A stretch of DNA of 64,000 nt from Catellatospora citrea (lineage in GTDB: Bacteria > Actinomycetota > Actinomycetes > Mycobacteriales > Micromonosporaceae). The stretch's first letter is position 1; every line of letters starts with the position of its first letter. A program made the position numbers and the translations under genes. Under the pieces are notes generated by a model that was not told the DNA's origin, made no database searches, and worked only from the letters and a program-made list of their open reading frames with translations. Positions 3,195 to 57,472 of this stretch are shown here, piece by piece. The DNA lies in NCBI RefSeq assembly GCF_003610235.1, contig NZ_RAPR01000001.1, forward strand, positions 2,976,001 to 3,040,000, in the 5' to 3' direction.

Positions 3195-3368
3195 GAGTCG
3201 ATGCGGCGGCCGGAGTCTCCTGACTCCCGGATCTACGCCCGGCCCCGGGCCTTCCCTTGCGGTGGCCTCGGATCTCTCCGATGGGGTGGGGACGGGCTCC
3301 CCGGTCACAGTGGCGGGACCGTCTCGGCTCTTCCCCGAGTTCCTCCCTGCCGCCGAGTGCGATCCTAG
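3195..3368 (-). promoter_or_regulatory. Cobalamin (AdoCbl) riboswitch upstream of cobN
   Basis: On the minus strand the leader contains GGAACTCGGGGAAGAGCCGAG, then CCCGCCACTGTGACCGGGGAG (about 3300-3320), and further downstream GAGTCAGGAGACTCCGGCC (about 3208-3226). These match in order the conserved cobalamin riboswitch core: the CCCGCnACTGT B12-box region and the GnCAGGAnACC element. It ends about 40 bases before the cobN start, next to the Shine-Dalgarno, so control of translation initiation is likely; no clear U-tract terminator is seen. The outer boundary is approximate. Confidence 0.93.
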
Positions 3369-3384: not shown

Positions 3385-3750
3385 ATGGCCTATCAGTGGC
3401 TCGCCGCCGCCACCATGGTGGCGCACTTCGCGTTCCTCGCGTACGTCGTCGCGGGCGGTTTCCTGGCCTGGTGGCGGCCGTGCCTGATCTGGCCGCACGT
3501 GGTCGCCGTCGGCTGGGGTTTCGCCACGGTCGCCCTCGGCCTCGACTGCCCCCTGACGTACGTCGAGGACTGGGCCCGCCGCAAGGCCGGCGAGCAGGGC
3601 CTGAGCCGAGGATTCATCGACACCTACCTGACCGGCGTGGTCTACCCCGAGCGGTACACCCTGCTGTTGCAGGTCCTGGCGGGCCTGGTCGTGCTGACCT
3701 CGTGGGTCGGCTTCCTGCTCCGCCGCAGGGCCGCCCGCGACCGCGCCTGA
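3385..3750 (+). CDS. DUF2784 family membrane protein
   Basis: A 121-residue integral membrane protein of the DUF2784 family, function unknown. Family hallmarks are the central LDCPLTYVEDWARRKAG segment (about residues 52-68) and the GFIDTYLTGVVYPE segment (about 76-89). Three hydrophobic stretches (about 5-28, 33-52, 94-113) suggest three membrane segments, followed by an Arg-rich cytoplasmic tail. It is transcribed divergently from cobN across the riboswitch leader and is apparently leaderless. Length is normal for the family. It is probably monocistronic, since a tandem repeat and an independent riboswitch follow. Confidence 0.88.
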   Translation: MAYQWLAAATMVAHFAFLAYVVAGGFLAWWRPCLIWPHVVAVGWGFATVALGLDCPLTYVEDWARRKAGEQGLSRGFIDTYLTGVVYPERYTLLLQVLAGLVVLTSWVGFLLRRRAARDRA

Positions 3751-3864: not shown

Positions 3865-3933
3865 ACGGCGGCGATATCGACAGGAAACCATTCGCCGATG
3901 TAATCCACGGTGACTCACCGAAGGTGAGGCGCG

Positions 3934-4052
3934 CCTAGGGTTCCGCCGTTCCGGCCCTGTCGTTTCGGGTCGCCGGACGGGCTGGTCCGAGAGGCGCAGG
4001 CGGCCCGCGTTGCGGCGTGGCCGTTCCACGGCGGGACAAAAGCCCGGGAGAC
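3934..4052 (+). promoter_or_regulatory. Guanidine-I (ykkC) riboswitch
   Basis: The leader carries in order CTAGGGTTCCG (3935-3945), CTGGTCCGAGAGGCGCAGG (about 3982-4000) and ACGGCGGGACAAAAGCCCGG (4028-4047, followed by GAGA), which are the characteristic conserved blocks of the ykkC subtype-1 guanidine aptamer. Immediately downstream CCTGGC (4062-4067) and GCCAGG (4077-4082) can pair, a likely part of the expression platform just before the GGAGGT Shine-Dalgarno at 4094-4099. In the known class guanidine binding turns expression on. Its position directly upstream of a ureohydrolase and an ABC importer fits guanidine uptake and degradation. Confidence 0.95.
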
Positions 4053-4104
4053 AGCCGAACACCTGGCTGTTTCACGGCCAGGCTCCTCGTTTCGGAGGTG
4101 CCCC

Positions 4105-5301
4105 ATGGGCTTCGCCCACCACCATCACGGCCAGCACCATCACGGCGACCACCGCCATGGCTCGCCGGAGGACAACGCGCTGCGCGAGCAGCACGGCCTG
4201 CACGAGCACTACGGCCCCGAGGCTGCGTACGCCGTCGCGCGCGAGGCCGAGCTGCCCACCACGAAGTGGGAGGAGGAGATCGCCCGCGGGCTGGAGTACG
4301 GCCTGCCCGGCGCGGACTCCATCGTCGACAGGCGGATCCCGACGTTCTCCCGCGGCGAGCTGCCGCACTTCGCCGGCATCAACACGTTCCTCAAGGCCCC
4401 GTACCTGGAGGACGTGCGCCGGTGCGGCGAGTACGACGTCGCCGTGCTGGGTGCCCCGTTCGACGGCGGCACGACCTACCGCCCCGGCACCCGGTTCGGC
4501 CCGCAGGGCATCCGGCGCATCTCCGCGCTGTACGGCCCGTACAGCTTCGAGCTGGGTGTGGACTTGCGGGAGTCGATCACGATCGCGGACCTGGGTGACG
4601 TGTTCACCATCCCCGCCAACATCGAGAAGACGTTCGACCAGATCTCCAAGGCCGTCGGCCACGTGTACGCCTCGGGCGCGTTCCCCGTGGTCCTCGGCGG
4701 CGACCACTCCATCGGCTACCCCACCGTGCGCGGCGTCGCCGAGCACCTGCAGGGCAACCTCGGCATCATCCACTTCGACCGCCACGTCGACACCCAGGAG
4801 ACCGACCTCGACGAGCGGATGCACACCACCCCGTGGTTCCACGCCACGGACATCCCCAACGTGCCCCCGAAGAACCTGGTGCAGATCGGCATCGGCGGCT
4901 GGCAGGCCCCGCGGCCCGGCGTCCAGGTCGGGCGGGAGCGCGGGACCACGATCATGACGGTCACCGACTGCGTCGAGATGGGCATCGAGGCCGCCGCCGA
5001 ACGGGCCCTGGAGGTCGCCTGGGACGGGGCCGAGGCGGTGTGGCTGTCCTTCGACGTGGACTGCCTGGACGCCGCGTTCGTGCCCGGCACCGGCTGGCCC
5101 GAGCCGGGCGGCTTCCTGCCCCGCGAGGTGCTCAAGTTCATCCAGCTCATCGCCGAGCGGCCGCTGGCGGGCATCGAGATCGTGGAGTGCTCGCCGCCGT
5201 ACGACAACGCCGACATCACGTCGCTCATCGCGACCCGCGTCATCTGCGACACGCTCGGCTGCCTGGTGCGCGCCGGCCACCTGCCCCGCCGCAACTCCTG
5301 A
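4105..5301 (+). CDS. gdmH: Guanidine hydrolase-like ureohydrolase (arginase superfamily, probably Ni-dependent)
   Basis: A 398-residue ureohydrolase predicted to hydrolyse guanidine to urea and ammonia. Arginase-fold metal motifs are visible: GGDHSIGYPT (about residues 199-208), HFDRHVDTQE (about 224-233) and SFDVDCLDAAFVPGTGWPEPGG (about 315-336, written here with its SFDVDCLD metal-binding start). The Arg in DRH, where arginases and agmatinases have Ala (DAH), and the DERMHTTPWFHA segment after it set it apart from the agmatinase at 56.4 kb and resemble the Ni-dependent guanidine hydrolase type (GdmH, Synechocystis Sll1077). The N terminus is unusual: about ten His in the first 18 residues. 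The start is set by GGAGGT 6 bases upstream. It is first gene of a guanidine-riboswitch operon. Substrate is inferred from riboswitch and neighbours; other guanidino compounds remain possible. No HypA/HypB-like maturation genes lie nearby. Confidence 0.82.
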   Translation: MGFAHHHHGQHHHGDHRHGSPEDNALREQHGLHEHYGPEAAYAVAREAELPTTKWEEEIARGLEYGLPGADSIVDRRIPTFSRGELPHFAGINTFLKAPYLEDVRRCGEYDVAVLGAPFDGGTTYRPGTRFGPQGIRRISALYGPYSFELGVDLRESITIADLGDVFTIPANIEKTFDQISKAVGHVYASGAFPVVLGGDHSIGYPTVRGVAEHLQGNLGIIHFDRHVDTQETDLDERMHTTPWFHATDIPNVPPKNLVQIGIGGWQAPRPGVQVGRERGTTIMTVTDCVEMGIEAAAERALEVAWDGAEAVWLSFDVDCLDAAFVPGTGWPEPGGFLPREVLKFIQLIAERPLAGIEIVECSPPYDNADITSLIATRVICDTLGCLVRAGHLPRRNS

Positions 5302-5327
5302 CCTCTCGACTGATCCAGGAGACATAC

Positions 5328-6338
5328 ATGAACCGACGTTCCCTCCACCGCCTCGCGGCCGTCACCGCCGTCGCCGCGCTGGTCCTGCCCGCCACGGCCT
5401 GCGGCGGCTCGGACGATCCCGCGCCGGGCGCGCCCGCCACCGTCGTGCTCGGCTTCAGCGCCTGGCCCGGCTGGTTCCCCTGGCAGGTCGCGCAGGAGCA
5501 GGGCCTGTTCGCCAAGAACGGCGTCACCGTCGAGCTGAAGTACTTCGACAGCTATACCGACAGCCTCACCGCGCTGGCCACCGGCAACCTCAGCGCCAAC
5601 AGCCAGACGCTGGGCGACACGCTGACCTCGATCAGCGGCGGCGCGCAGCAGACCATCGTGCTGGTCAACGACAACTCCACCGGCAACGACCAGATCATCG
5701 CCAAGCCCGGCATCAACACCGTCGCCGATCTCAAGGGCAAGCGGGTCGCCGTCGAGCAGGGCACCGTCGACCACTACCTGCTGCTGCTGGCGCTCAAGAC
5801 GGCCGGACTGACCGAGGCCGACATCGCGCTCAAGCCGATGCTGACCGACGCCGGCGCCGCCGCGTTCACCACCGGCGAGGTCGACGCGGTGGGCGCGTTC
5901 GCCCCGTTCACCACCACCGCGCTCGGGCTGGCCGGCAGCAAGGCCATCGCCACCAGCGCCGACTTCCCCGGCGCGATCCCCGACCACCTGGTCTTCACGG
6001 CCGCGTTCGTCAAGGACCACCCGACCGAGGTGCAGGCCGTGGTCAAGACCTGGTTCGACACCCTGGCCTGGATCAAGGCCAACCCGGACGCCGCGATCGA
6101 CATCATGGCGAAGAAGGCCGGGGTCAGCGCCGCCGACTACAAGTCGTACGACGCCGGCACGACGATCTTCACCCGGGAGCAGAACCTGGCCGCGTTCACG
6201 CCCGGCTCCACCCCCGCGAACCTCGACTTCCAGGCGAAGTCGATCGCCGAGTTCATGGTCTCGGCCAAGCTCGTCGATTCCGCACCGCCGCTGGACGGCC
6301 TGCTCGAACCCAAGTTCGTCCAGGCGGTGTCGCCATGA
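5328..6338 (+). CDS. ABC transporter substrate-binding lipoprotein (NMT1/SsuA-TauA type)
   Basis: A 336-residue extracytoplasmic solute-binding lipoprotein. It has an Arg-rich n-region, a hydrophobic core and a lipobox-like PATAC with the lipidated Cys at residue 25, followed by GGSDDP. The mature part begins with the NMT1/THI5-like pattern GFSAWPGWFPWQVAQEQGLF, and continues with the periplasmic binding type-2 fold (DLKGKRVAVEQGTVDHYLL near 135-155). AGGAGA lies 5 bases before the chosen ATG, 26 bases after the ureohydrolase stop. The permease start overlaps its stop by 4 bases. In this operon the likely ligand is guanidine or a close guanidino compound, by context only; the family otherwise binds nitrate, sulfonates, taurine or pyrimidines. 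Confidence 0.87.
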   Translation: MNRRSLHRLAAVTAVAALVLPATACGGSDDPAPGAPATVVLGFSAWPGWFPWQVAQEQGLFAKNGVTVELKYFDSYTDSLTALATGNLSANSQTLGDTLTSISGGAQQTIVLVNDNSTGNDQIIAKPGINTVADLKGKRVAVEQGTVDHYLLLLALKTAGLTEADIALKPMLTDAGAAAFTTGEVDAVGAFAPFTTTALGLAGSKAIATSADFPGAIPDHLVFTAAFVKDHPTEVQAVVKTWFDTLAWIKANPDAAIDIMAKKAGVSAADYKSYDAGTTIFTREQNLAAFTPGSTPANLDFQAKSIAEFMVSAKLVDSAPPLDGLLEPKFVQAVSP

Positions 6339-7471
6339 GCCTGCTCACCGAAGGGGGCCCGGAACCGGCCGGCAGCCCAGGGCAGGCGGACACGGCAGAC
6401 GTGCCGGTGGCCCACGGTGCCACCGGCCGTCCCGCAGCGGACGACTCCTTGACGCCCGCCTTGGTGCCCGGCTCCTCGGTGCCCGGCTCCTCGGTGCCCG
6501 GCTCCTCGGTGCCCGGCGTCCTCGTCGCCGGCGACGCCGCGTCGCCGGAGCGCGGCCCGGCCGGGGCACCCGAAGACCTGACCGGCAGTTCCGGACCGGC
6601 CGACGGCGCGGTCGGTCCGGAGCACGCCGGTCCGGGAGCCGGGGCGGCGGCGTTCGCGCCGCTGCCCCGGCGGCGGCCGCCGCGCCGCGTGCCGCGGGTC
6701 TTCGCCATCCGCGCCCCGATCCCCCGGCCGTCGCGGCTGGCGCTGACCGCGCTGTCGGTGCTCGTGCCACTCGCCTTGTGGCAGGTGCTCAGCGTGGCCA
6801 TCGACGGCCGTCCCGACTACCTGCCGTCCCCCGCGCAGGCCTGGGCGGCCGGGCTCGACCTGGCCCGCGACGGGCTGCTGCTCGGCGACACCCTCGCCAG
6901 CATCCGGCGGGTGCTGCTCGGCTTCGGGCTGGCCGTGGCGGTCTCGGTGCCGCTCGGCATCGCGATGGGCGCGTTCCAGGCCGGGCGGGCCGCCTTCGAG
7001 CCGGTCATCGGCCTGCTGCGCTACCTGCCGGCGAGCGCGTTCATCCCGCTGCTGGCCCTGTGGCTGGGCATCGACGAGATGTCGAAGGTGGCGCTGCTGT
7101 TCCTCGGCACCGTCTTCTTCAACACCCTGATGACCGCCGACGCGGTACGCCGGATACCCGACGCGCTCGTGGACGTGTCGTACACCCTCGGCGCGCGCCG
7201 CAGCGAGGTGCTGCGCAAGGTCGTCATCCCGCACTCGCTGCCCGGCATCCTCGACGCGATCCGGGTGAACGCGGCCGCGGCCTGGAACTTCGTGGTCGTC
7301 GCCGAACTGTTCGCGGCCGAGGAGGGCCTCGGCTACCGCATCGTGCGGTCGCAGCGCTTCAACCAGATCGACCGCATCTTCGCGGTCCTCGTGGTCATCG
7401 CGCTGATCGGCCTCACCATCGACATCGCGCTGCGCCTGCTGCGCGACCGGGTCGGCAGGTGGACCTCATGA
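6335..7471 (+). CDS. ABC transporter permease with long N-terminal extension (SsuC/TauC type)
   Basis: Membrane permease of the importer. The start ATGA overlaps the lipoprotein stop, indicating translational coupling. The core from about residue 125 to 375 is a standard binding-protein-dependent transport domain with five to six membrane segments and an EAA-type cytoplasmic loop (SEVLRKVVIPHSLPGILDAI, about 288-307) that docks on the ATPase. Family members are usually 250-280 residues; this one has 378 because of an extra N-terminal region of about 120 residues, rich in Gly, Pro, Ala and Ser, which contains four tandem VPGSS-type units encoded by a 15-bp repeat, then an Arg/Pro-rich stretch before the first membrane segment. 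An internal start near residue 110 is possible, but the ATGA overlap favours the long form. Confidence 0.87.
   Translation: MSLLTEGGPEPAGSPGQADTADVPVAHGATGRPAADDSLTPALVPGSSVPGSSVPGSSVPGVLVAGDAASPERGPAGAPEDLTGSSGPADGAVGPEHAGPGAGAAAFAPLPRRRPPRRVPRVFAIRAPIPRPSRLALTALSVLVPLALWQVLSVAIDGRPDYLPSPAQAWAAGLDLARDGLLLGDTLASIRRVLLGFGLAVAVSVPLGIAMGAFQAGRAAFEPVIGLLRYLPASAFIPLLALWLGIDEMSKVALLFLGTVFFNTLMTADAVRRIPDALVDVSYTLGARRSEVLRKVVIPHSLPGILDAIRVNAAAAWNFVVVAELFAAEEGLGYRIVRSQRFNQIDRIFAVLVVIALIGLTIDIALRLLRDRVGRWTS
6464..6523 (+). repeat. 15-bp in-frame tandem repeat in the permease N-terminus
   Basis: GTGCCCGGCTCCTCG is repeated perfectly three times (6464-6508) and followed by a partial fourth copy. It encodes successive VPGSS units in a disordered extension. 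Being in-frame and perfect, it should vary in copy number between strains. Confidence 0.9.
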
Positions 7472-7605
7472 CCCGAGCACCCCGACGACCGCACGCACAC
7501 CTGCAGGCGGCCGTGGCCGGAGCACCCCCGACGGCCGCACGTCGGCAGGTGAACCTCATGACCCGAGCACCGCGATGGCCGCACGCACGCCTGCAGGCGG
7601 CCGTG
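7451..7605 (+). repeat. 65-bp direct repeat spanning the permease 3' end
   Basis: Segment 7451-7515 recurs at 7541-7605 with 5 mismatches (60 of 65 identical), a 90-base period. The first copy includes the last codons and TGA of the permease, so the second is a decayed copy of that gene end. A partial third unit (GGAGCACCCCCGACGGCCGC, about 7519-7538) lies between them. It fills the 181-base gap before the ATPase gene, which otherwise would be expected to be tightly coupled. Confidence 0.9.
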
Positions 7606-7652
7606 ACCATAACGCCGAGGCAGCCGCCCGGCCGCACCGAAAGGCTGCCCTG

Positions 7653-8429
7653 ATGACCGGAACGCTGCGCCTTCGGGCCGTCGGCAAGGACTTCACCCGC
7701 GGCCGGGAGCAGGTGCGCGCGCTGGAGGACATCGACCTGGAGGTCGCCCGGGGCTCGTTCGTGTGCGTGGTCGGCGCGTCCGGCTCCGGCAAGTCGACCC
7801 TGCTCGCGCTGATCGCGGGCCTGTCCCGGCCCACCACGGGCGAGGTGCTGCTCGACGGGATTCCCGTCACCGGGCCCGGACCCGATCGCGGTCTGGTCTT
7901 CCAGACCGGCGCCGTCTACCCCTGGCGCACCGTGGCCCGCAACGTCGCGTTCGGACTGGAACTGCTTCCCCTCAGCCGCGGCGAACGCGCCGCCCGCGTC
8001 GACCACTACCTCGCCGCGACCGGCCTGACCAAGCTGCGCCACGCGCTGCCCCGGCAGTTGTCCGGCGGCCAGCGCCAGCGCGTCGCCATCGCCCGCGCGC
8101 TGGCCTGCGAACCCGAGGTGCTGCTGCTCGACGAGCCGTTCGGCGCGCTCGACGTGCAGACCAAGGAGGACATGCAACTGTTCATCCGCCGCCTGTGGCA
8201 GGAGTGCGGCACCACCGTCATCATGGTCACCCACGATGTGGAGGAGGCCGTCTTCCTCGGCGAACGCGTCATCACCCTGGCCAGCAACCCCGGCCGCGTC
8301 GCCGCCGACGTGACCGTGCCACTGCCCGGCGAACGCGACCTCACCGTCAAGCGCGACGCCGCCTTCCTGGGCGTACGCGCGCAGATCGAGGACCTGGTCC
8401 GGCTCTACCACCACGACCAGGCCGGCTGA
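7653..8429 (+). CDS. ABC transporter ATPase (SsuB/TauB type)
   Basis: A 258-residue nucleotide-binding subunit. Walker A GASGSGKST is at residues 41-49, the signature LSGGQRQRVAIARAL at about 136-150 and Walker B VLLLDEPFGALD at about 156-167, followed by the H-loop TVIMVTHDVEEAVF. Length and PFGALDVQTKE are typical of the nitrate/sulfonate/taurine importer ATPases. The ATG at 7653 was chosen because GAAAGG lies 8 bases upstream and the protein then starts just before the first beta strand; a start 78 bases upstream would add residues encoded by the 65-bp repeat. It is the last gene of the guanidine-riboswitch operon and should power the uptake system. Confidence 0.92.
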   Translation: MTGTLRLRAVGKDFTRGREQVRALEDIDLEVARGSFVCVVGASGSGKSTLLALIAGLSRPTTGEVLLDGIPVTGPGPDRGLVFQTGAVYPWRTVARNVAFGLELLPLSRGERAARVDHYLAATGLTKLRHALPRQLSGGQRQRVAIARALACEPEVLLLDEPFGALDVQTKEDMQLFIRRLWQECGTTVIMVTHDVEEAVFLGERVITLASNPGRVAADVTVPLPGERDLTVKRDAAFLGVRAQIEDLVRLYHHDQAG

Positions 8430-10708: not shown

Positions 10709-12340
10709 TCAGACCACCAGCGTCGCGGCGCGGGCGGCCAGTCCGACGCCGACGAGCAGCACCATCGCGCTCGCGGCGTACGGTCCGGCCAGGCGCAGCC
10801 GGCGGAATCGGTCGAACCGGCCCGCCCAGCGGTCGCGGACCTTGAGCAGCAGCAGCCCGGCCGCGGTGAGCGTGCCCGCCATGCCCAGGCCGTAGGCGAA
10901 CACCAGCAGGATCCCGAAACCGGTCCGGCCCAGCGCGATGGCCCCCAGCAGCACGACCAGCGCGGACGGACTCGGCACCAGTCCGGTCGCCACACCGATC
11001 GCCCCGAGCCCGAGCCGCCCGCGCACCGAGTGCTCATGTCTGTGGTCGCCGTCGTGGGAATGGGGGCGGCCGAACAGACCATGCCGATGCCCATGCGAGC
11101 CCTGCGCGTGCGGGCCGTGCGAGTGCGAGTCATGCGTGTGCGGGCCGTGCGAGTGCGAGCCGGACGCGTGCGAGCCGGACGCGTGCGAGCCGGGCATTCG
11201 TTGGTCCTGGCCGTCGGGGCCCTGATCGGACGTGGCACGGGTCGGGCGGCGGCGCAGGTTGGTCAGCAGCATGGCGAGGCCCACGGTGATCACGATGGTG
11301 CCGCTGGCCAGGCCGAGCCAGCCGAGGACGGTCTGGCCGGTCAGCCCGGAGACCGCGGTGAGCAGCAGACCGAGGGCGATCACGCCGCCGGTGTGGGTGG
11401 CGGTGACGGTCGCGCCGACGGTCACCGCGTCGCGGGGACGGCCCGCGCGGCCGGCCAGGTATACCGCCATCACGGTCTTGCCGTGTCCCGGGAGCAGCGC
11501 GTGGCCTGCGCCGAGCACCAGGGCGAGCAGGACGGCGAGCAGCCCGACCAGCGGGGTAAGCCGGTCGGCGCCGACGGTGTCGAGGACCTGCTGCTGCGCC
11601 CAGGCGGCCCAGCGCAGCGGTGCGGGGTCGTCAGGTCGTGCAGGTGCGCCCAGGTCAGGTGTGGTGCCGGGCGCGATGCCGTCCGTCGGCTCGCCCGCTG
11701 ACGCGGCAGCGGTGGCCGGACGGGCGGACAGGCGGGCGTCGCGCACGTCCAGCGGGGAGCCGAGCAGGTCGATGGGGTAGTTGCGCAGCTGGTTCGTGGT
11801 GCTGCGCGACGGGACGGGTGTGCCGGGCAGGTCGACGCCGATGCCGACGGCGGTGATCTCACGCCAGCCGACGTGGTCGGCTAGGTGGCCGTTGTGGACG
11901 GTGAGCGTCGCGGCGCGGTCCAGCCGGGCCGGGGCGCTCAGGGTGCAGGTGATCCGGCTGGTCGGCAAGCCTGCCGAGCCTGGTTCGAGCGTCATCGAGG
12001 TCGTGTCGACGGCCCAGCCCAGGGGGCGGTCGTCGATGCGTACCGCCAGGTCCCGGGCGAAGGCGTCGCACGTGGCCGCAGCGTGTCCGCGCAGCTCGGA
12101 CGCGTCGGCGACGCCGTCTCCGGAGGTGTCGACGAGGCTCCGCCGTTGCAGCGTGGGCAGTTCCGCGACGTCGAGGATCGTGGTGGCGTCGACGCGGTCG
12201 GGTCGCACGGTCAGCGCGACCGACTGGTTGATGGAGAGGTTGCCGAGCGGGTGCGCCGAGGCGGGGGCGGGCAGCAGCGCGAGCGCGGCGCCCACCAGCG
12301 CCGTCACCGGCAGCGTCCTTCTGATCAGCTTGCGGTTCAT
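10709..12340 (-). CDS. NicO/RcnA-type nickel-cobalt transporter with large extracytoplasmic N-domain
   Basis: A 543-residue membrane protein. A signal peptide (MNRKLIRRTLPVTALV... to about residue 28, ASA/HPLG) leads to an extracytoplasmic domain of about 230 residues that holds an EF-hand-like calcium loop, DTSGDGVADASE (about 69-80). The transport part (about 265-543) begins with GHALLPGHGKTVMAVYL, a HoxN/NicO signature containing the metal-binding His residues, and has six or so membrane segments. Between them, about residues 382-435, is a cytoplasmic loop very rich in His (repeated GSH, SHSHGPH, DHRHEH), as in RcnA exporters. Direction of transport is not settled by sequence; export or metal sensing is plausible. 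Its ATGA start overlaps the TPR gene stop, so it is coupled to it, as the last gene of the DUF4331-TPR-NicO operon. Confidence 0.85.
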   Translation of the reverse strand: MNRKLIRRTLPVTALVGAALALLPAPASAHPLGNLSINQSVALTVRPDRVDATTILDVAELPTLQRRSLVDTSGDGVADASELRGHAAATCDAFARDLAVRIDDRPLGWAVDTTSMTLEPGSAGLPTSRITCTLSAPARLDRAATLTVHNGHLADHVGWREITAVGIGVDLPGTPVPSRSTTNQLRNYPIDLLGSPLDVRDARLSARPATAAASAGEPTDGIAPGTTPDLGAPARPDDPAPLRWAAWAQQQVLDTVGADRLTPLVGLLAVLLALVLGAGHALLPGHGKTVMAVYLAGRAGRPRDAVTVGATVTATHTGGVIALGLLLTAVSGLTGQTVLGWLGLASGTIVITVGLAMLLTNLRRRPTRATSDQGPDGQDQRMPGSHASGSHASGSHSHGPHTHDSHSHGPHAQGSHGHRHGLFGRPHSHDGDHRHEHSVRGRLGLGAIGVATGLVPSPSALVVLLGAIALGRTGFGILLVFAYGLGMAGTLTAAGLLLLKVRDRWAGRFDRFRRLRLAGPYAASAMVLLVGVGLAARAATLVV

Positions 12341-13683
12341 CGGGCACCTGCCGAGGCCAGGGCGCGCGCCGCGGCGGGCGCGTCGACCGGGGAGAAGTGA
12401 GGGTTGAGGTCCAGGGCCCGCGCTAGATCGCGCCGGGCCGCGATCCGGTCGCCGAGGGCCAGTTCGATCATTCCCAGGTGGTACGCGTGAAGCGCGCTGC
12501 GCGCGCCGAGCGCCGTCGCGGCCTTCGCCAGGGGCAGCGCCTCGGCGGAACGCCCGGCCTGGTGCAGCGCCCAGGCGAGGGTGTCCGCGACATCGGTGTG
12601 CTTGCGCCGCCGCCACTCGGCCGTGGCCAGCCGCACCGCGGTGGCGTGGTCGCCGTGGGCCAGGGCCAGTTCGGCGGCGGCGAGATCGTCCCCGCCTCCC
12701 CCGGTCGCCAGCAGGTCGAGCGCGGCCTGTGCCAACGTCAGTTGCGCCTCGGCTTCGGCGGCGCGGCCGAGCGAGCGCAGCAGCAGCGCGTGCTCGACCA
12801 GCAGCGATGGTGTCGGCGAGGCGGCGGTCAGTGCGGCGTACCCGGCCAGCGCCTCGGGGGTGCGGCCGCTCGCCGCGTCGACGCGGGCGAGCCCGTGGCG
12901 CAGCGGCAGGTAGCCGGCGTCCGCGGCCAGCCCGGCCCGGTAGGCGGCGTGGGCCGCGTCGAGGTCGCCGCCGTGCCAGGCCAGGTCGCCGAGCTGGTGG
13001 TGCACGAAGGCGAGGTCGGCGGGTGCGATCGCGGTGGCGAGCGCCTGGGTCCACAGCGTGCGGGCCTCGTCGACCCGGCCGTGCTGTTCGAGGTCGTACG
13101 CGGCCCGGGACAGCGCGGGCAGTCCCGGCCGCAGGTCGAGCATGCGCTGCGCGGCGTCGGTCGCCTCAGCGGGTCGGCCGAGCTGGGTCAGCGCGTCGGT
13201 CAGCACGCCGTACGCGTCGGCGCTGAACGGGTTGACCGCGATCGCCTGCCGGGCCAGCCGCTCGGCCTGCGCGAAGTCGTGCCGCGCGTTGGCCAGTGCG
13301 CCCAGCCCGGTCAGCGCGCCGTGGTTGCCCGAGCCGGTGTCGGCGCCGGTCGCGGTGCCGTCGGCGGCCGGGCCTGCCGGGTGCAGGCGCAGCGACTCGC
13401 GCAGCGCGCCCTCGGCCCGGGTGTAGTAGCCGGGATCCCCGGTGATCCGGGCCCGCTCGACGTACGCGCCGCCCAGCGCCGCCCAGGTGGTCCAGTCGCC
13501 GGGCACGTCCCGCAGCCGCGTCTGGGCCTGCTCGATCGACCTGACCAGCGGATCGCCCTGCGCGTACGCGGGTTCGGCCTGCCACGCCCCGGGTGCGGCG
13601 CCGAACGCGCCCCCGAGGCCGAACAGCACCACGGCGGTGACGCCCACCGCGATGCTGCGTCGCCACATGCTCCGTCGCCACAT
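12337..13683 (-). CDS. TPR-repeat membrane-anchored protein
   Basis: A 448-residue protein with an N-terminal signal anchor (hydrophobic stretch about residues 11-30, after the duplicated MWRRSMWRRS) and then tandem tetratricopeptide-like helical pairs over most of its length, with repeated A-x-x-L-x-x-D-P-like spacing (for instance LARQAIAVNPFSADAYGVL and RDLARALDLNPHFSPVDAPA near the C terminus). No enzymatic motif is present; it should act as an extracytoplasmic or membrane scaffold. The start at 13683 is favoured by a GGGGAGGA Shine-Dalgarno directly upstream. It is second in the DUF4331-TPR-NicO operon and overlaps the transporter gene by 4 bases. The role in this conserved trio is unknown; scaffolding for metal handling is inference. 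Confidence 0.82.
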   Translation of the reverse strand: MWRRSMWRRSIAVGVTAVVLFGLGGAFGAAPGAWQAEPAYAQGDPLVRSIEQAQTRLRDVPGDWTTWAALGGAYVERARITGDPGYYTRAEGALRESLRLHPAGPAADGTATGADTGSGNHGALTGLGALANARHDFAQAERLARQAIAVNPFSADAYGVLTDALTQLGRPAEATDAAQRMLDLRPGLPALSRAAYDLEQHGRVDEARTLWTQALATAIAPADLAFVHHQLGDLAWHGGDLDAAHAAYRAGLAADAGYLPLRHGLARVDAASGRTPEALAGYAALTAASPTPSLLVEHALLLRSLGRAAEAEAQLTLAQAALDLLATGGGGDDLAAAELALAHGDHATAVRLATAEWRRRKHTDVADTLAWALHQAGRSAEALPLAKAATALGARSALHAYHLGMIELALGDRIAARRDLARALDLNPHFSPVDAPAAARALASAGAR

Positions 13684-52971: not shown

Positions 52972-54651
52972 CTACCCCAGCTCGACCGGCGCGCCCGGAC
53001 CGAGCGGGATGCCCAGCAGATACCAGACCACGAAGAACAGGGTCCAGGCCACCGCGATGATCAGCATGTACGGGATCATCAGCGAGATGACCGTGCCGAC
53101 GCCGGCCTCCTTCTTGTACTTCTGCGCCAGCAGCACGATGAACGGCAGATACACCATCAGCGGGGTGACCACGTTCATCGGCGAGTCGGCCACCCGGTAG
53201 GCGGCCAGCACGGTCTGCGGCGCGACGCCCAGGCGCAGGAACAGCGGCACGAAGATGGGCGCGAAGATGGCCCACTTCGGGATGACGCCCGGGATGATGA
53301 TGTCCAGCAGCAGCACCACCAGGATGAAGCCGATGAGCAGCCACAACGGCCCGATGTTGGCGCGCTCCAGCCCGTCGGCCATCTTCACCGCGGCGACGGT
53401 GGCCATGTTCGTGTAGTTGAAGTACGCGATGAACTGGGCGATCACCAGCAGCATGAAGATCAGGCCGCCCAGCCCGGCGAACGTCTTCGTGATCGCGTCC
53501 ATCGCCGCCGCGGTGCCCTTGAGGGTGCCCGCGCCAGTCCCGTAGCACAGGCCGCAGACCAGGAAGACCAGCATGATGATGAAGATCAGGCTGTCCATCA
53601 GCGGTGAATCCTCGACCAGGCTGCCGGTGACCGGGTTGCGCAGGATGCCCCATGGTTTTGGCGGCAGCGACAGCAACAACAGCACGGCCAGCACGGCCAG
53701 CAGGCCCCAGCAGGCGTAGCGCAGCCCGCGGGCCTGCGCGGCCGGGGGCGCGTCGCCCTCCACCGGCGCGGCCTCGGGCACGTCGGTGGCCTCGTGCGAC
53801 ACGGCTCCCGTGTACTTGCCCAACCGCGGCTCGATGATCTTCTCGGTGATGAAGGTGATCAGGAAGGCCAGGAAGATGGTCGAGCCGATGGCGAAGAACA
53901 TGTTCGCGGTGAGACTGATCTTCCGGGCCGGGTCCGCCAGCGCGACCGCCTCGTTGGTGATCTCGGTGATGATGCCGTCGGTCGGCGTGATCAGCACGTT
54001 CACCATGAACGTGCCGCCCACCGCGCCGAACGCGGCCGCGAGCCCGGCCAGCGGATGCCGGCCGACACTCATGAACGCGACCGCCCCGAGCGGGATCAGC
54101 ACCAGGTATCCGGCGTCGGAGGCGATCGACGACAGGATGCCGACCAGCACGATGATGAAGGTCAGCGACCAGGGCGGGGCGACCGCGACCAGCTTGCGGA
54201 TCAGTGCGCCGATGAGCCCGGCCCGCTCGGCCAGGCCCACACCGATCATGGCGACGAGGATGACGCCGACCACGCCGAAGTTGGTGAAGTTGGTGACCGC
54301 CGAGGTGAAGATGAACCGGATGCCGTCCGCGGTGAGCAGGCTCTTGATCGCGGTGGTCTCGGTGTGGGTCTTCACCTCGGGGTGGTAGAACTCCTCGGGC
54401 GGGATGTCCAGCGAGGGCTGCTGGGTGCCGCCGGGATACGTCTCCTCCGCCACCACCGGCGCGGGGGCGGCCGACTCGTAGGTGACCTGCACGCCGATCG
54501 CGGCGAAGATCGCCGAGAGCACGATGATCAGACCGATCAGGATCAGGAAGATCATCACCGGGTGCGGCACCTTGTTGCCGACCTTCTCGACCCCGTCCAG
54601 CAGACGCTGGGTGAACGGACGCTTCCCGGCGGACGCGGTCGCTGCGGTCAT
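52972..54651 (-). CDS. AbgT family transporter (p-aminobenzoyl-glutamate type)
   Basis: A 559-residue membrane protein with about eleven spans. AbgT family blocks are VGNKVPHPVMIFLILIGLII (about 23-42), SIASDAGYLVLIPLGAVAFM, AAFGAVGGTFMVNVLITPTD and NYTNMATVAAVKMADGLE, with NVVTPLMVYLPFIVLLAQKY near the end. AbgT members import p-aminobenzoyl-glutamate (folate breakdown product) or export sulfonamides. The neighbouring upstream gene encodes a leucyl aminopeptidase; release of glutamate from the imported conjugate or peptide salvage is possible, by inference. Followed by SLC13 on the same strand. Confidence 0.93.
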   Translation of the reverse strand: MTAATASAGKRPFTQRLLDGVEKVGNKVPHPVMIFLILIGLIIVLSAIFAAIGVQVTYESAAPAPVVAEETYPGGTQQPSLDIPPEEFYHPEVKTHTETTAIKSLLTADGIRFIFTSAVTNFTNFGVVGVILVAMIGVGLAERAGLIGALIRKLVAVAPPWSLTFIIVLVGILSSIASDAGYLVLIPLGAVAFMSVGRHPLAGLAAAFGAVGGTFMVNVLITPTDGIITEITNEAVALADPARKISLTANMFFAIGSTIFLAFLITFITEKIIEPRLGKYTGAVSHEATDVPEAAPVEGDAPPAAQARGLRYACWGLLAVLAVLLLLSLPPKPWGILRNPVTGSLVEDSPLMDSLIFIIMLVFLVCGLCYGTGAGTLKGTAAAMDAITKTFAGLGGLIFMLLVIAQFIAYFNYTNMATVAAVKMADGLERANIGPLWLLIGFILVVLLLDIIIPGVIPKWAIFAPIFVPLFLRLGVAPQTVLAAYRVADSPMNVVTPLMVYLPFIVLLAQKYKKEAGVGTVISLMIPYMLIIAVAWTLFFVVWYLLGIPLGPGAPVELG

Positions 54652-54766
54652 GCCTGCTCCTCGCTGCGCTCGTCGTCGGCCCGCGGTGGCGCCGACAGGT
54701 TTCGCTCGCCGCGATCAGCCGCGGCCCGCCGGCTTGCGGGCAGGTGCCGCCATTGCCGTCGCTCGC

Positions 54767-56302
54767 TCATGCGCGGCCCTTCCTCGCCAGTGGCGCGGGC
54801 TGCGGGCGCTGGAAGGCCAGCGCGAGGTCGAGCAGCAGTCGCGCGCCGAATCCGGTGCAGCCCTGCGGGATCCAGGTGCGCGCCGTGTCGTTCTGTGCCG
54901 TGCCGGCGATGTCGATGTGCGCCCACGGGGTGCCCGCGACGAACTCCTCCAGGAACAGCGCGGCGTGGATCGCCGCGGCGTTCGCGCCGCCCATGTTCTT
55001 GATGTCGGCGACGTCGGAGTTCATCTCGCCGCGGTAGCGGTGCGCCACGGGCAGCTGCCAGACCTGCTCGTCGACCCGCGCGGCCGCGGCCCGCACCTGG
55101 TCCACCAGGCCCTGGTCGTTGCCGAACACCCCGGCGATCTGCGCGCCGAGGGCGCGCAGACAGGCCCCGGTCAGCGTGGCGATGTCCACGATCGCGTCCA
55201 CCGGCTCCTCGGTGGCCAGCACCAGCGCGTCGGCCATCACCAGGCGGCCCTCGGCGTCGGCGTTGACCACCTCGACCGTCGTGCCGCCGCGGATGGTGAG
55301 CACGTCGCCGAGCTTGACGGCGGTGCCCGAGGGCATGTTGTCGGTGCACATCAGGTAGCCGGTGACCGCCACGGGGCAGTCCAGCTCGCCCAGCATGGCC
55401 ATCGCGGCGAGGATCGCGCCCGCGCCGGACATGTCGTTCTTCATGGTCGCGTGGACCGCGTCGGCGGGCTTGAGGCTGATCCCGCCGGAGTCGTACATGA
55501 TGCCCTTGCCCACCAGCGTCAACCGGGGCACGTCGGGGTCGCCCTCCGGGCGGTAGCGCAGCTTGATCATGCGCGGCTCGTCGGCGCTGCCCGCGTTCAC
55601 CCCGAGCAGGCCGCCGCAGCCCAGTTCGAGCAGCGCGTCCCGGTCGTACACCTCGACGGACAGCCCGCTGTCCGCGCCGAGCTGCGCGGCCACCCCGCCG
55701 AGCCGCTCCGCGGTGAGCATGCTCGGCGGCGAGTTGGCCAGATCGCGGGCCAGCGCGGCGGCCCTGGCGTACACGAGCCCGCGATGCGCCCCGCGCCGCA
55801 CCGCCTGCACGTCGTCCGGCGCGGCCACCACGGTCAGCGCGGTGACCGGCGGCGCGCTCTCCTTCTTCAGCACCTCGAAGCGATACCGGGCCAGCAGCAC
55901 CCCCTCGACCGCGGCCTGCCCGGCGGTCTCCGGTGGCACCCCGGTCGCCCCCTCCAGCGCCATCACCAGGCGTCCGGCAGAACCGGCCGCGCACGCGAAC
56001 GCGGCGGCCGCGTCGCGCAGCCGGTCGCCGTCGAGTTCCGCCGGGTCGCCGGCGCCGACCGCGATCAGCGCAGGGCCGCCCGGCTGCGGCAGGGCCAGCG
56101 TCTGGCCGATCTTTCCGGTGAACTCGGCCTCGGCCAGGTCGCCCCGGTCCACGCCCAGCACCGGCGGCACCGCGCCCGAGGCGGCCACCAGCACGCCCAT
56201 CGGCGCGTTGCCGACGTAGAGGTCCCCGGCCGCGACGACGGCGACGTCGGGAACACGCGTCCAGGAGGGAACGGGCTCGAAGCCTGTCGCCGTCGCTGTC
56301 AT
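54767..56302 (-). CDS. pepA: Leucyl aminopeptidase (M17, PepA)
   Basis: A 511-residue cytosolic M17 metallo-aminopeptidase. The catalytic Lys/Asp region is VGKGIMYDSGGISLKPADAV (about residues 263-282), MKNDMSGAGAILAAMAMLGE follows, and the signature is VVNADAEGRLVMADAL (about 340-355; NADAEGR rather than the commonest NTDAEGR), then ADIKNMGGANAAAIHAALFL. An N-terminal regulatory domain of about 180 residues is present. It is 116 bases upstream of the AbgT transporter gene on the same strand, so probably in an operon. Divergent from the agmatinase-family gene. Confidence 0.95.
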   Translation of the reverse strand: MTATATGFEPVPSWTRVPDVAVVAAGDLYVGNAPMGVLVAASGAVPPVLGVDRGDLAEAEFTGKIGQTLALPQPGGPALIAVGAGDPAELDGDRLRDAAAAFACAAGSAGRLVMALEGATGVPPETAGQAAVEGVLLARYRFEVLKKESAPPVTALTVVAAPDDVQAVRRGAHRGLVYARAAALARDLANSPPSMLTAERLGGVAAQLGADSGLSVEVYDRDALLELGCGGLLGVNAGSADEPRMIKLRYRPEGDPDVPRLTLVGKGIMYDSGGISLKPADAVHATMKNDMSGAGAILAAMAMLGELDCPVAVTGYLMCTDNMPSGTAVKLGDVLTIRGGTTVEVVNADAEGRLVMADALVLATEEPVDAIVDIATLTGACLRALGAQIAGVFGNDQGLVDQVRAAAARVDEQVWQLPVAHRYRGEMNSDVADIKNMGGANAAAIHAALFLEEFVAGTPWAHIDIAGTAQNDTARTWIPQGCTGFGARLLLDLALAFQRPQPAPLARKGRA

Positions 56303-56437
56303 TCCACCGCTCCCTCATGCCGACGGCACACCACCGGTTCGTGCAGCCCTGAAGCACAGCATCACGGCTCTGGAGTGAATTTGAGGACGTTTTGCGAGGA
56401 TTGGTCGTTCGGCCCGGCCTCCGGTGAGAATGGAGGC

Positions 56438-57472
56438 GTGACCCGCTACGGCGCGCAGTACGGCCCGGACTTCACGTTCCTCGGGGTGCCTCGCTGCGAC
56501 TGGGCCGACCCGGTGACCTATGCCGACGCCGACGTGGTGATCCTGGGCGCGCCGTTCGACGGCGGCACCTCGCACCGCCCCGGCACCCGGTTCGGGCCCG
56601 GCGCCATCCGCGGCACCGACTACCTGCCACACGACGGCTCCCGGCCGCACCTGGCGCTGCGGGTCGACCCGCTCGGCCCCGACCTGGCCGTACGCGACGC
56701 GGGCGACCTGGAGCTCTACAGCGGCGAGGTGCTACGCAGCTGCCAGAGCATCGAGGACGCGGTGGCGTTCCTCGCCGAGCACGGCGTGATCCCGCTGATC
56801 CTGGGCGGCGACCACACCGTGACCTGGCCGGACGTCACCGGAGTGGCCCGGCGGCACGGATACGGCCGGGTCTCGGTGATCCACTTCGACGCGCACGCCG
56901 ACACCGGTGACATCAACTTCGGCTCGCTCTACGGCCACGGCCAGCCGATGCGCCGGCTGATCGAGTCCGGCGCGGTGCGCGGCGACCGCTTCCTGCAGCT
57001 CGGACTGCGCGGCTACTGGCCCGAGCCGGCGACCCTCGACTGGATGGCCGACCAGGGCATGCGGTCGTACCACATGGGCGAGATCGGTGCCCGGGGGCTG
57101 GACGCGGTGCTCGACGAGGCGTTCGCGATCGCCCTGGACGGCTGCGACGCGGTCTTCCTCTCCGTCGACATCGACGTGTGCGACCCGGCGCACGCGCCCG
57201 GCACCGGCACGCCCGAGCCCGGCGGCCTCACCGCCCGCCAGCTGCTCGACGCGGTGTCGCGCATCTGCCGCACGCTGCCCGTGGCGGGCATGGACGTGGT
57301 CGAGGTCTCCCCGCCGTACGACCATGCCGAGATCACCGCGATGCTCGGCAACCGCGTCGTGCTGGAGGCGCTGTCCGGTATGGCCCGCCGCCGCCGCGAC
57401 ACCCGCGACGGCGCCCCCTGGGACCCCACCACCCCCCTGCTCGACGGCCGCGGCGCGACCTCGTCGGACTGA
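56438..57472 (+). CDS. Agmatinase/guanidinobutyrase-family ureohydrolase
   Basis: A 344-residue member of the arginase superfamily that hydrolyses a guanidino compound to urea and an amine. Metal-binding motifs are GGDHTVTWPDV (about 122-132), VIHFDAHADTGDINFG (about 146-161; canonical DAHAD) and SVDIDVCDPAHAPGTGTPEP (about 241-260). Length and motif order fit agmatinase or 4-guanidinobutyrase. It differs from the guanidine hydrolase-like enzyme at 4.1 kb, which has DRHVD and a longer His-rich N terminus. GTG start at 56438 with GGAGG almost adjacent, or leaderless. No riboswitch is seen upstream. Confidence 0.9.
   Translation: MTRYGAQYGPDFTFLGVPRCDWADPVTYADADVVILGAPFDGGTSHRPGTRFGPGAIRGTDYLPHDGSRPHLALRVDPLGPDLAVRDAGDLELYSGEVLRSCQSIEDAVAFLAEHGVIPLILGGDHTVTWPDVTGVARRHGYGRVSVIHFDAHADTGDINFGSLYGHGQPMRRLIESGAVRGDRFLQLGLRGYWPEPATLDWMADQGMRSYHMGEIGARGLDAVLDEAFAIALDGCDAVFLSVDIDVCDPAHAPGTGTPEPGGLTARQLLDAVSRICRTLPVAGMDVVEVSPPYDHAEITAMLGNRVVLEALSGMARRRRDTRDGAPWDPTTPLLDGRGATSSD

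What the first reader, a model, noticed from the sequence alone, without database searches (positions are those of the whole stretch)
3934..8429. Complete guanidine regulon: ykkC riboswitch, GdmH-like hydrolase and a dedicated ABC importer
Seen: the conserved guanidine-I aptamer blocks, immediately followed by a DRHVD-type ureohydrolase and an NMT1-type lipoprotein, permease and ATPase. Known: Ni-dependent guanidine hydrolases of this type are riboswitch-controlled in cyanobacteria. Inferred: this actinobacterium imports and degrades free guanidine, and the lipoprotein is a guanidine-binding one. The usual urea carboxylase-based guanidine genes are not here, so this is an alternative, hydrolytic route.
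Basis: partly seen in the sequence, partly recalled or inferred. Interest (0 to 1): 0.72.

Follow-up and report, generated by a model that had tools for sequence, protein, structure and literature searches.

The report
Riboswitch-controlled guanidine import and hydrolysis operon
An actinobacterium carries a small gene set that appears to sense free guanidine with an RNA switch, import it and split it into urea and ammonia; the same kind of operon is already known from cyanobacteria, but here the usual nickel-loading helper genes are missing and the enzyme carries an unusual histidine-rich tail.

Summary
A guanidine-I aptamer lies at 3924-4052 (66.1 bits, gathering 63), 52 nt before a ureohydrolase gene (4105-5301). 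The enzyme is closest to two characterised guanidinases (9fek, 7esr/7oi1) and has the three published specificity residues (T124, H240, W331). A lipoprotein, permease and ATPase follow, of the families published for the Synechocystis operon. The same order stands in 35 of 60 actinomycete loci. The genome has urease, no carboxylase over the TIGR02712 cut-off, and a second guanidine switch (class III), so 'complete regulon' is too strong.

So it is a new member of a known kind. What differs: no HypA/HypB-type nickel chaperone gene was found in the operon or in 80 related loci (up to 9 kb each side; 48 of 80 complete). The window's enzyme has 12 His in the 34 residues after Met. Tails of its nearest homologs are 17.1% His (119 proteins), of cyanobacterial-type homologs 0.8% (115). 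A self-carried nickel-loading tail is possible but untested; most relatives have few tail His, and comammox enzymes lack both tail His and nearby chaperones. The leader shows two competing pairings in 33 of 50 leaders. Guanidine binding by the lipoprotein is inferred.

The parts
3924..4052 (+). Guanidine-I (ykkC) riboswitch aptamer
   Evidence: RF00442, 66.1 bits, gathering 63, E 1.6e-9; only site found in the genome
4051..4082 (+). Putative expression platform: A (4051-4057) pairs with B (4064-4070), or B (4062-4070) pairs with C (4074-4082)
   Evidence: both helices found in 33 of 50 leaders (15% of shuffled leaders); 28 of 50 with p<=0.05 against their own 100 shuffles; 17 of 50 lack it. 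The mechanism is inferred
4081..4102 (+). Local hairpin that pairs the GGAGG ribosome-binding site (4094-4098)
   Evidence: RNA folding of window stretches; not tested by covariation
4105..5301 (+). gdmH: guanidine hydrolase of the ureohydrolase (arginase) family
   Evidence: PF00491; 9fek 722 bits, 7esr/7oi1 581 bits; T124, H240, W331 invariant in a 14-sequence alignment that includes the window
4105..4209 (+). His-rich N-terminal tail of GdmH (residues 1-35; 12 His in the 34 residues after Met)
   Evidence: ATG supported by GGAGG 6 nt upstream
5328..6338 (+). Lipoprotein substrate-binding protein (SsuA/TauA family), presumed guanidine binder
   Evidence: TIGR01728 214.3 bits over cut-off; AlphaFold mean pLDDT 91.5, nearest solved folds TauA and SsuA
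6335..7471 (+). ABC permease with a low-complexity N-terminal extension
   Evidence: PF00528 97 bits
7653..8429 (+). ABC ATPase (NrtD/SsuB/TauB type)
   Evidence: PF00005 111.5 bits; TauB- and NtrCD-type models 236 and 223 bits, under their cut-offs

Best explanation
This is a guanidine-assimilation operon of an actinobacterium (nearest relatives found are Catellatospora). Free guanidine binds the guanidine-I aptamer in the leader and turns expression on. The lipoprotein, permease and ATPase import guanidinium. The GdmH enzyme, probably with nickel, hydrolyses it to urea and ammonia, and the chromosomal urease elsewhere finishes the breakdown. SHOWN by sequence: the aptamer, gene order, family membership, the three specificity residues, metal-ligand positions, synteny in relatives, presence of urease, and no chaperone genes found near gdmH. 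INFERRED: ligand binding, ON direction of the switch, metal identity, hydrolysis, and transporter substrate.
For: RF00442 over gathering. GdmH is 722 bits to the comammox guanidinase structure 9fek and 581 bits to Synechocystis GdmH, against 190 bits to the next solved ureohydrolase (the PDB labels read 'agmatinase 2', the identities come from passages). T124/H240/W331 match the residues that PMC11410670 required for calling a guanidinase (T105, H222, W313; passage); I mapped them through the alignment, with a constant offset of 2. The second ureohydrolase in the same window (56408-57472) differs: T to S, W to T, DAH not DRH; it passes the agmatinase model (186.8 over 174.3), GdmH does not (157.1). 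The order gdmH-SBP-permease-ATPase is in 35 of 60 actinomycete loci; ureC or ureG in 15 of 60. Urease in the own genome. Same importer families in the Synechocystis operon (passage of PMC8390497).
Against: No assay was possible. The SBP is nearest in fold to taurine and sulfonate binders. Some gdmH loci show no guanidine-I switch: no Rfam match in 7 loci searched, 3 of them Lentzea; 39 of 54 genomes have a match at E<=0.001, 34 over the cut-off (with stricter filters that lose weak matches). The operon lacks the hypA/hypB genes of the cyanobacterial operon, so nickel loading is unexplained.
Confidence: 0.9

Rival explanations
1. The enzyme mainly hydrolyses another guanidino compound (agmatine, guanidinobutyrate, methylguanidine), guanidine being a side substrate.
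For: It is in the ureohydrolase family, and many of its homologs carry the label agmatinase in databases.
Against: TIGR01230 agmatinase 157.1 bits, under the cut-off 174.3; all three guanidinase residues present; the switch class is described as not recognising metabolites with a guanidino group (passage of PMC11410670).
Confidence: 0.05
2. The ABC importer carries something other than guanidine (taurine, sulfonate, urea) and is in the operon for nitrogen scavenging in general.
For: Fold and sequence nearest to TauA/SsuA.
Against: The three genes are near gdmH in 38 of 80 loci. Residues conserved in 95% or more of 40 gdmH-linked SBPs include 8 Asp, 2 Glu, 4 Trp and no Lys or Arg, which suits a cation better than an anion; no control set of sulfonate binders was run, so this is weak.
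Confidence: 0.12
3. Nickel reaches GdmH by itself or through the urease UreG or hydrogenase HypA of the same cell, and the His-rich N-tail has no function in metal loading.
For: A UreG-like protein lies by the urease; HypA is in a hydrogenase-type hyp cluster. Comammox guanidinase has no His-rich tail (0 or 1 tail His in 18 Nitrospirota loci) and no chaperone genes near it, yet took up nickel when expressed in E. coli (passages of PMC11410670). 69 of 81 loci have fewer than 3 His in the variable tail.
Against: His in tails is far above body, cyanobacterial-type tails and control ORFs, and the His-rich state needs 9 changes on a quick tree.
Confidence: 0.6

Closest known systems
Synechocystis sp. 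PCC 6803 gdmH (sll1077) operon with hypA, hypB and sll1080-1082
   Same: Guanidine-I control, GdmH, SsuA-family SBP, permease and NrtD/SsuB-type ATPase (passage of PMC8390497; passage of PMC12186494)
   Different: No hypA/hypB found here; His-rich N-tail on the enzyme (cyanobacterial-type tails 0.8% His)
Comammox Nitrospira inopinata guanidinase operon (PDB 9fek)
   Same: Closest solved enzyme (722 bits); guanidine-I switch; no nickel chaperones near (passage of PMC11410670)
   Different: APC-superfamily permease in place of the ABC importer (passage); N-terminal extension without a His cluster (comammox-type tails)
Actinomycete gdmH loci (Catellatospora, Dactylosporangium, Plantactinospora, Nonomuraea and others)
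   Same: Same gene order gdmH-SBP-permease-ATPase in 35 of 60 loci
   Different: Some have urease genes near gdmH (15 of 60), a distant APC-type permease (7 of 60, 27-31% identity) or short tails
Metformin hydrolase operons with hypA, hypB, hupE
   Same: Nickel ureohydrolases related to GdmH (passages of PMC11399263)
   Different: Two-subunit enzyme, chaperones and a nickel transporter in the operon, another substrate

Membership tests
Guanidine-I riboswitch (RF00442) | Covariance-model score over the gathering score, full-length | tested here: met
   66.1 bits against 63, model 1-107 of 107
Guanidine-I riboswitch (RF00442) | Binds guanidine | not testable with these tools
   Needs in-line probing or ITC
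Guanidinase GdmH | Thr, His, Trp at the positions of N. inopinata T105, H222, W313 | tested here: met
   T124, H240, W331 by the alignment; invariant in a 14-sequence alignment; criterion from a PMC11410670 passage
Guanidinase GdmH | Ureohydrolase metal ligands (H, DxHxD, DxD; ligand set recalled) | tested here: met
   H201, D225, H227, D229, D317, D319 invariant
Guanidinase GdmH | Ni-dependent hydrolysis of guanidine to urea and ammonia | not testable with these tools
   Enzyme assay needed
Cyanobacterial-type gdmH operon | SsuA-family SBP, permease and NrtD/SsuB-type ATPase in the operon | tested here: met
   described for Synechocystis in a PMC8390497 passage
Cyanobacterial-type gdmH operon | hypA and hypB nickel chaperone genes in the operon | tested here: not met
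   None found in the window's operon or in 80 loci; weak HypB hits in 8 of 80 all lie on UreG. The same queries found HypB in 11 and HypA in 10 of 11 true HypB loci (L109-L119)
Guanidine carboxylase pathway | Urea/guanidine carboxylase over the TIGR02712 cut-off | tested here: not met
   Best own-genome match 520.1 bits against cut-off 1303.85, over model 2-443 of 1201 only, as expected of other biotin carboxylases
Agmatinase (TIGR01230) | Score over the equivalog cut-off | tested here: not met
   157.1 against 174.3

The most novel reading that the evidence does not exclude
In actinobacteria whose gdmH operons lack nickel chaperone genes, guanidinase carries its own nickel-gathering device: a fast-changing, His-rich N-terminal tail on each subunit of the presumed hexamer, doing in cis part of what HypA/HypB do in trans in cyanobacteria. 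The tail has arisen or been lost several times, most markedly in Micromonosporaceae.
Probability: 0.2. Interest if true: 0.55.

Novelty: new member of a known kind. Interest (0 to 1): 0.36.

Why it matters
It shows that hydrolytic guanidine use, with its own switch and ABC importer genes, is found in many actinomycetes and sometimes sits beside urease. It also makes an open question testable: how a nickel-dependent ureohydrolase gets its metal when the HypA/HypB-type chaperones of the cyanobacterial operon are absent.

Tried and rejected
Rejected: agmatinase reading (below the agmatinase cut-off, guanidinase residues present). Rejected: a hidden guanidine carboxylase route. Rejected: HypB near gdmH; weak HypB matches in 8 of 80 loci lie on UreG; 11 of 54 genomes have a HypB over the cut-off, none of them found in the fetched gdmH loci. 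Rejected as a general rule: the A/B versus B/C leader pairing; 17 of 50 leaders lack it, 11 of these from Microbispora, Acrocarpospora, Sphaerisporangium and Herbidospora. There my rule for the end of the leader shortened at least two of them (L034, L039), and one further locus (L024) was dropped because its aptamer end was not found. Rejected: that all actinobacterial gdmH have His-rich tails; 12 of 81 (80 loci plus the window) have 3 or more His before the conserved LHxxY site. Starts there were picked by my own ribosome-site score. The tree is a quick one, 31 of 86 inner branches were drawn open, and no shuffle control was run, so '9 changes' is rough.

Limits of the tail counts: 1 of 120 and 5 of 120 proteins were dropped for lack of the anchor motif; most of the 120 nearest homologs are unnamed, those named are Actinomycetota or Dehalococcoidia; they were found with the His-tailed protein as query. 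The 835 control ORFs were picked mechanically and may include false ones; 54 of them have 3 or more and 6 have 5 or more His in 25 residues. My ORF picker missed true genes, so gene counts come from tblastn. The list of conserved SBP residues used wrongly started ORFs and is replaced. The SBP model gave the fold class only. The lowest-energy fold of the whole leader did not keep the aptamer fold, and A/B or B/C appeared by the stretch folded.

Papers: PMC12186494, PMC11410670, PMC8390497, PMC11399263 and PMC10119275 were seen as passages; all others as search listings. The Nature 2022 GdmH paper is not held and is only recalled. A search for 'guanidinase' with 'histidine-rich' gave 0 papers in the held open library; other searches.

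Full report
WHAT IS THERE. Reading the + strand from 3924: a guanidine-I aptamer (3924-4052, RF00442, 66.1 bits, gathering 63), a short leader, then gdmH (4105-5301), a lipoprotein SBP (5328-6338), a permease (6335-7471, start overlapping the SBP stop) and an ATPase (7653-8429; 7575 is an open alternative start). Upstream on the - strand is an ORF that I read as CobN (no family search was run on it) with a cobalamin riboswitch match at 3345-3213; a DUF2784 gene (3385-3750) lies between. The aptamer is the only RF00442 site found in the 9.3 Mb genome. The nearest enzymes are those of two Catellatospora species, 97% identical.

THE ENZYME. The protein scores 722 bits to 9fek (comammox guanidinase) and 581 bits to 7esr/7oi1 (Synechocystis guanidinase), against 190 bits to the next solved ureohydrolase. 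PMC11410670 (passage) required Thr, His and Trp at N. inopinata 105, 222 and 313; these correspond to T124, H240 and W331 here (alignment, constant offset of 2 to the chain numbering), and all are invariant in a 14-sequence alignment that includes the window. The metal ligands of the family (set recalled), H201, D225, H227, D229, D317 and D319, are invariant too. A second ureohydrolase in the same window (in the open frame 54482-57472, compared as 56408-57472; its true start was not settled) is 36% identical over 307 columns, has T to S, W to T and DAH for DRH, and passes the agmatinase model. It serves as an internal contrast.

THE IMPORTER. The SBP is over the SsuA-family cut-off (214.3 against 163.5); a lipobox cysteine can be read in its N-terminus. 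Its predicted structure (mean pLDDT 91.5, 25 sequences) is closest to TauA and SsuA. Among 40 gdmH-linked SBPs the positions conserved at 95% or more contain 8 Asp, 2 Glu, 4 Trp, 3 Tyr and 12 Phe but no Lys or Arg. That would suit a cationic ligand, but no control family was run. The Synechocystis operon has the same three families, sll1080-1082 (passage of PMC8390497). Guanidine as the substrate is therefore likely, not shown.

SPREAD. By record title 60 are Actinomycetota, 18 Nitrospirota and 2 Chloroflexota. All three importer genes are in the locus in 36, 0 and 2 of them. In 35 of the 60 actinomycete loci they follow gdmH in the window's order and strand within 5 kb; in L058, L033 and L052 the arrangement differs. 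ureC or ureG is in 15 of 60, 0 of 18 and 1 of 2 loci. An APC-type permease like the comammox one is in 14 of 18 Nitrospirota loci; distant relatives (27-31%) are in 7 of 60 actinomycete loci. Only 48 of 80 loci hold 9 kb on both sides, so these counts are lower bounds. In an even draw of 396 genomes of the phylum, 14 have a match at E<=1e-100, the own genome included. On plasmids 11 records hold a relative; two Rhodobacterales plasmids have SBP-permease-ATPase-gdmH, and a Rubrobacter plasmid has gdmH with a symporter and urease genes.

NICKEL LOADING. The published cyanobacterial operon has hypA and hypB (passages). In the 80 loci no HypA match was found, and the weak HypB matches (8 loci) all lie on UreG. 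As a positive control the same queries found HypB in 11 and HypA in 10 of the 11 true HypB loci fetched. In 54 genomes searched whole, 11 have a HypB over the cut-off. In the own genome the best HypB match is 63.9 bits against a cut-off of 121.2 and lies beside the urease, so it is probably UreG. HypA is present once, beside ORFs that I read as HypC, HypD and HypE. Comammox likewise lacks chaperone genes near its guanidinase (passage).

THE TAIL. The window's GdmH begins MGFAHHHHGQHHHGDHRHGSPEDNALREQHGLHEH. Tails of 119 of the 120 listed nearest homologs are 17.1% His (body 2.6%), and 25 of 119 have 5 or more His. Tails of 115 of 120 cyanobacterial-type homologs are 0.8% His (body 2.9%), and 0 of 115 have 3 or more. 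Residues 2-26 of 835 mechanically picked ORFs of the same loci are 2.8% His, 6 of 835 with 5 or more. Leaving out the last residues, which hold a conserved His, the figures are 13.1% against 1.0%, and 32 of 119 against 0 of 115 with three or more His. Among 80 loci plus the window, 12 of 81 have three or more; the 18 Nitrospirota tails have 0 or 1. On a quick tree of 91 rows this label needs 9 changes. A Rubrobacter tail begins MGAGHHHP. The tail is thus His-rich and lineage-specific, but most relatives have few His there. I hold a nickel-gathering role possible (0.2), not shown.

THE SWITCH. Behind the aptamer, segment B can pair with A (next to the aptamer) or with C. Both pairings were found in 33 of 50 leaders (15% of shuffled ones), 28 of 50 with p<=0.05 against their own shuffles; in L040, L053 and L054 the sequences are quite different but the design is the same. 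The remaining 17 of 50 lack it, and the search was designed after seeing the pattern in these leaders. C overlaps by 2 nt a hairpin that pairs the window's ribosome-binding site. No run of T follows C, so termination and ribosome access are both open. A review passage describes guanidine-I as regulating transcription.

SECOND GUANIDINE SWITCH. The genome also has a guanidine-III aptamer (40.1 bits, gathering 36) 12 nt before an 86-aa ORF rich in hydrophobic stretches, without a Pfam match. No guanidine-II match was found. One SMR-family gene lies elsewhere. Hence 'complete regulon' is not exact.

VERDICT. The operon is a new actinobacterial member of a known kind; how its enzyme gets nickel without operon-borne chaperones is the open point.

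Noticed in passing
L150:9025-9092 (-), own genome C1:5465024-5465091: A guanidine-III riboswitch 12 nt before an 86-aa hydrophobic ORF (L150:8752-9012 -), between ORFs that I read as FtsK and RimO; no Pfam match. Possibly a second guanidine-controlled gene.
   Followed up: partly
window 3213-3345 (-): Cobalamin riboswitch match (53.2 bits) at the 5' part of a long - strand ORF that I read as CobN and that runs off the window start, divergent from the guanidine operon.
   Followed up: no
window 10709-13054 (-): NicO nickel/cobalt transporter domain with a long His-rich stretch, a few kb from gdmH; among the 80 loci a match was found only in the two Catellatospora loci L002 and L003.
   Followed up: partly
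window 7451-7608: A 68-nt direct repeat (91%) at 90-nt spacing, from the end of the permease gene into the gap before the ATPase.
   Followed up: no
window 6459-6533: 15-nt tandem units coding VPGSS repeats in the N-terminal extension of the permease; relatives L002 and L003 have extensions of different sequence.
   Followed up: no
window 56408-57472 (+): A second, agmatinase-like ureohydrolase in the same window, without the guanidinase residues.
   Followed up: yes
own genome C1:1469163-1469486 (L121): Hydrogenase-type hyp cluster (my reading of the ORFs) with HypA, while no HypB over the model cut-off was found in the genome.
   Followed up: partly
L004, L005, L009, L014, L032, L040, L051, L053, L054 and others: Urease genes near gdmH (15 of 60 actinomycete loci), which would give a guanidine-to-ammonia gene set in one place.
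   Followed up: partly
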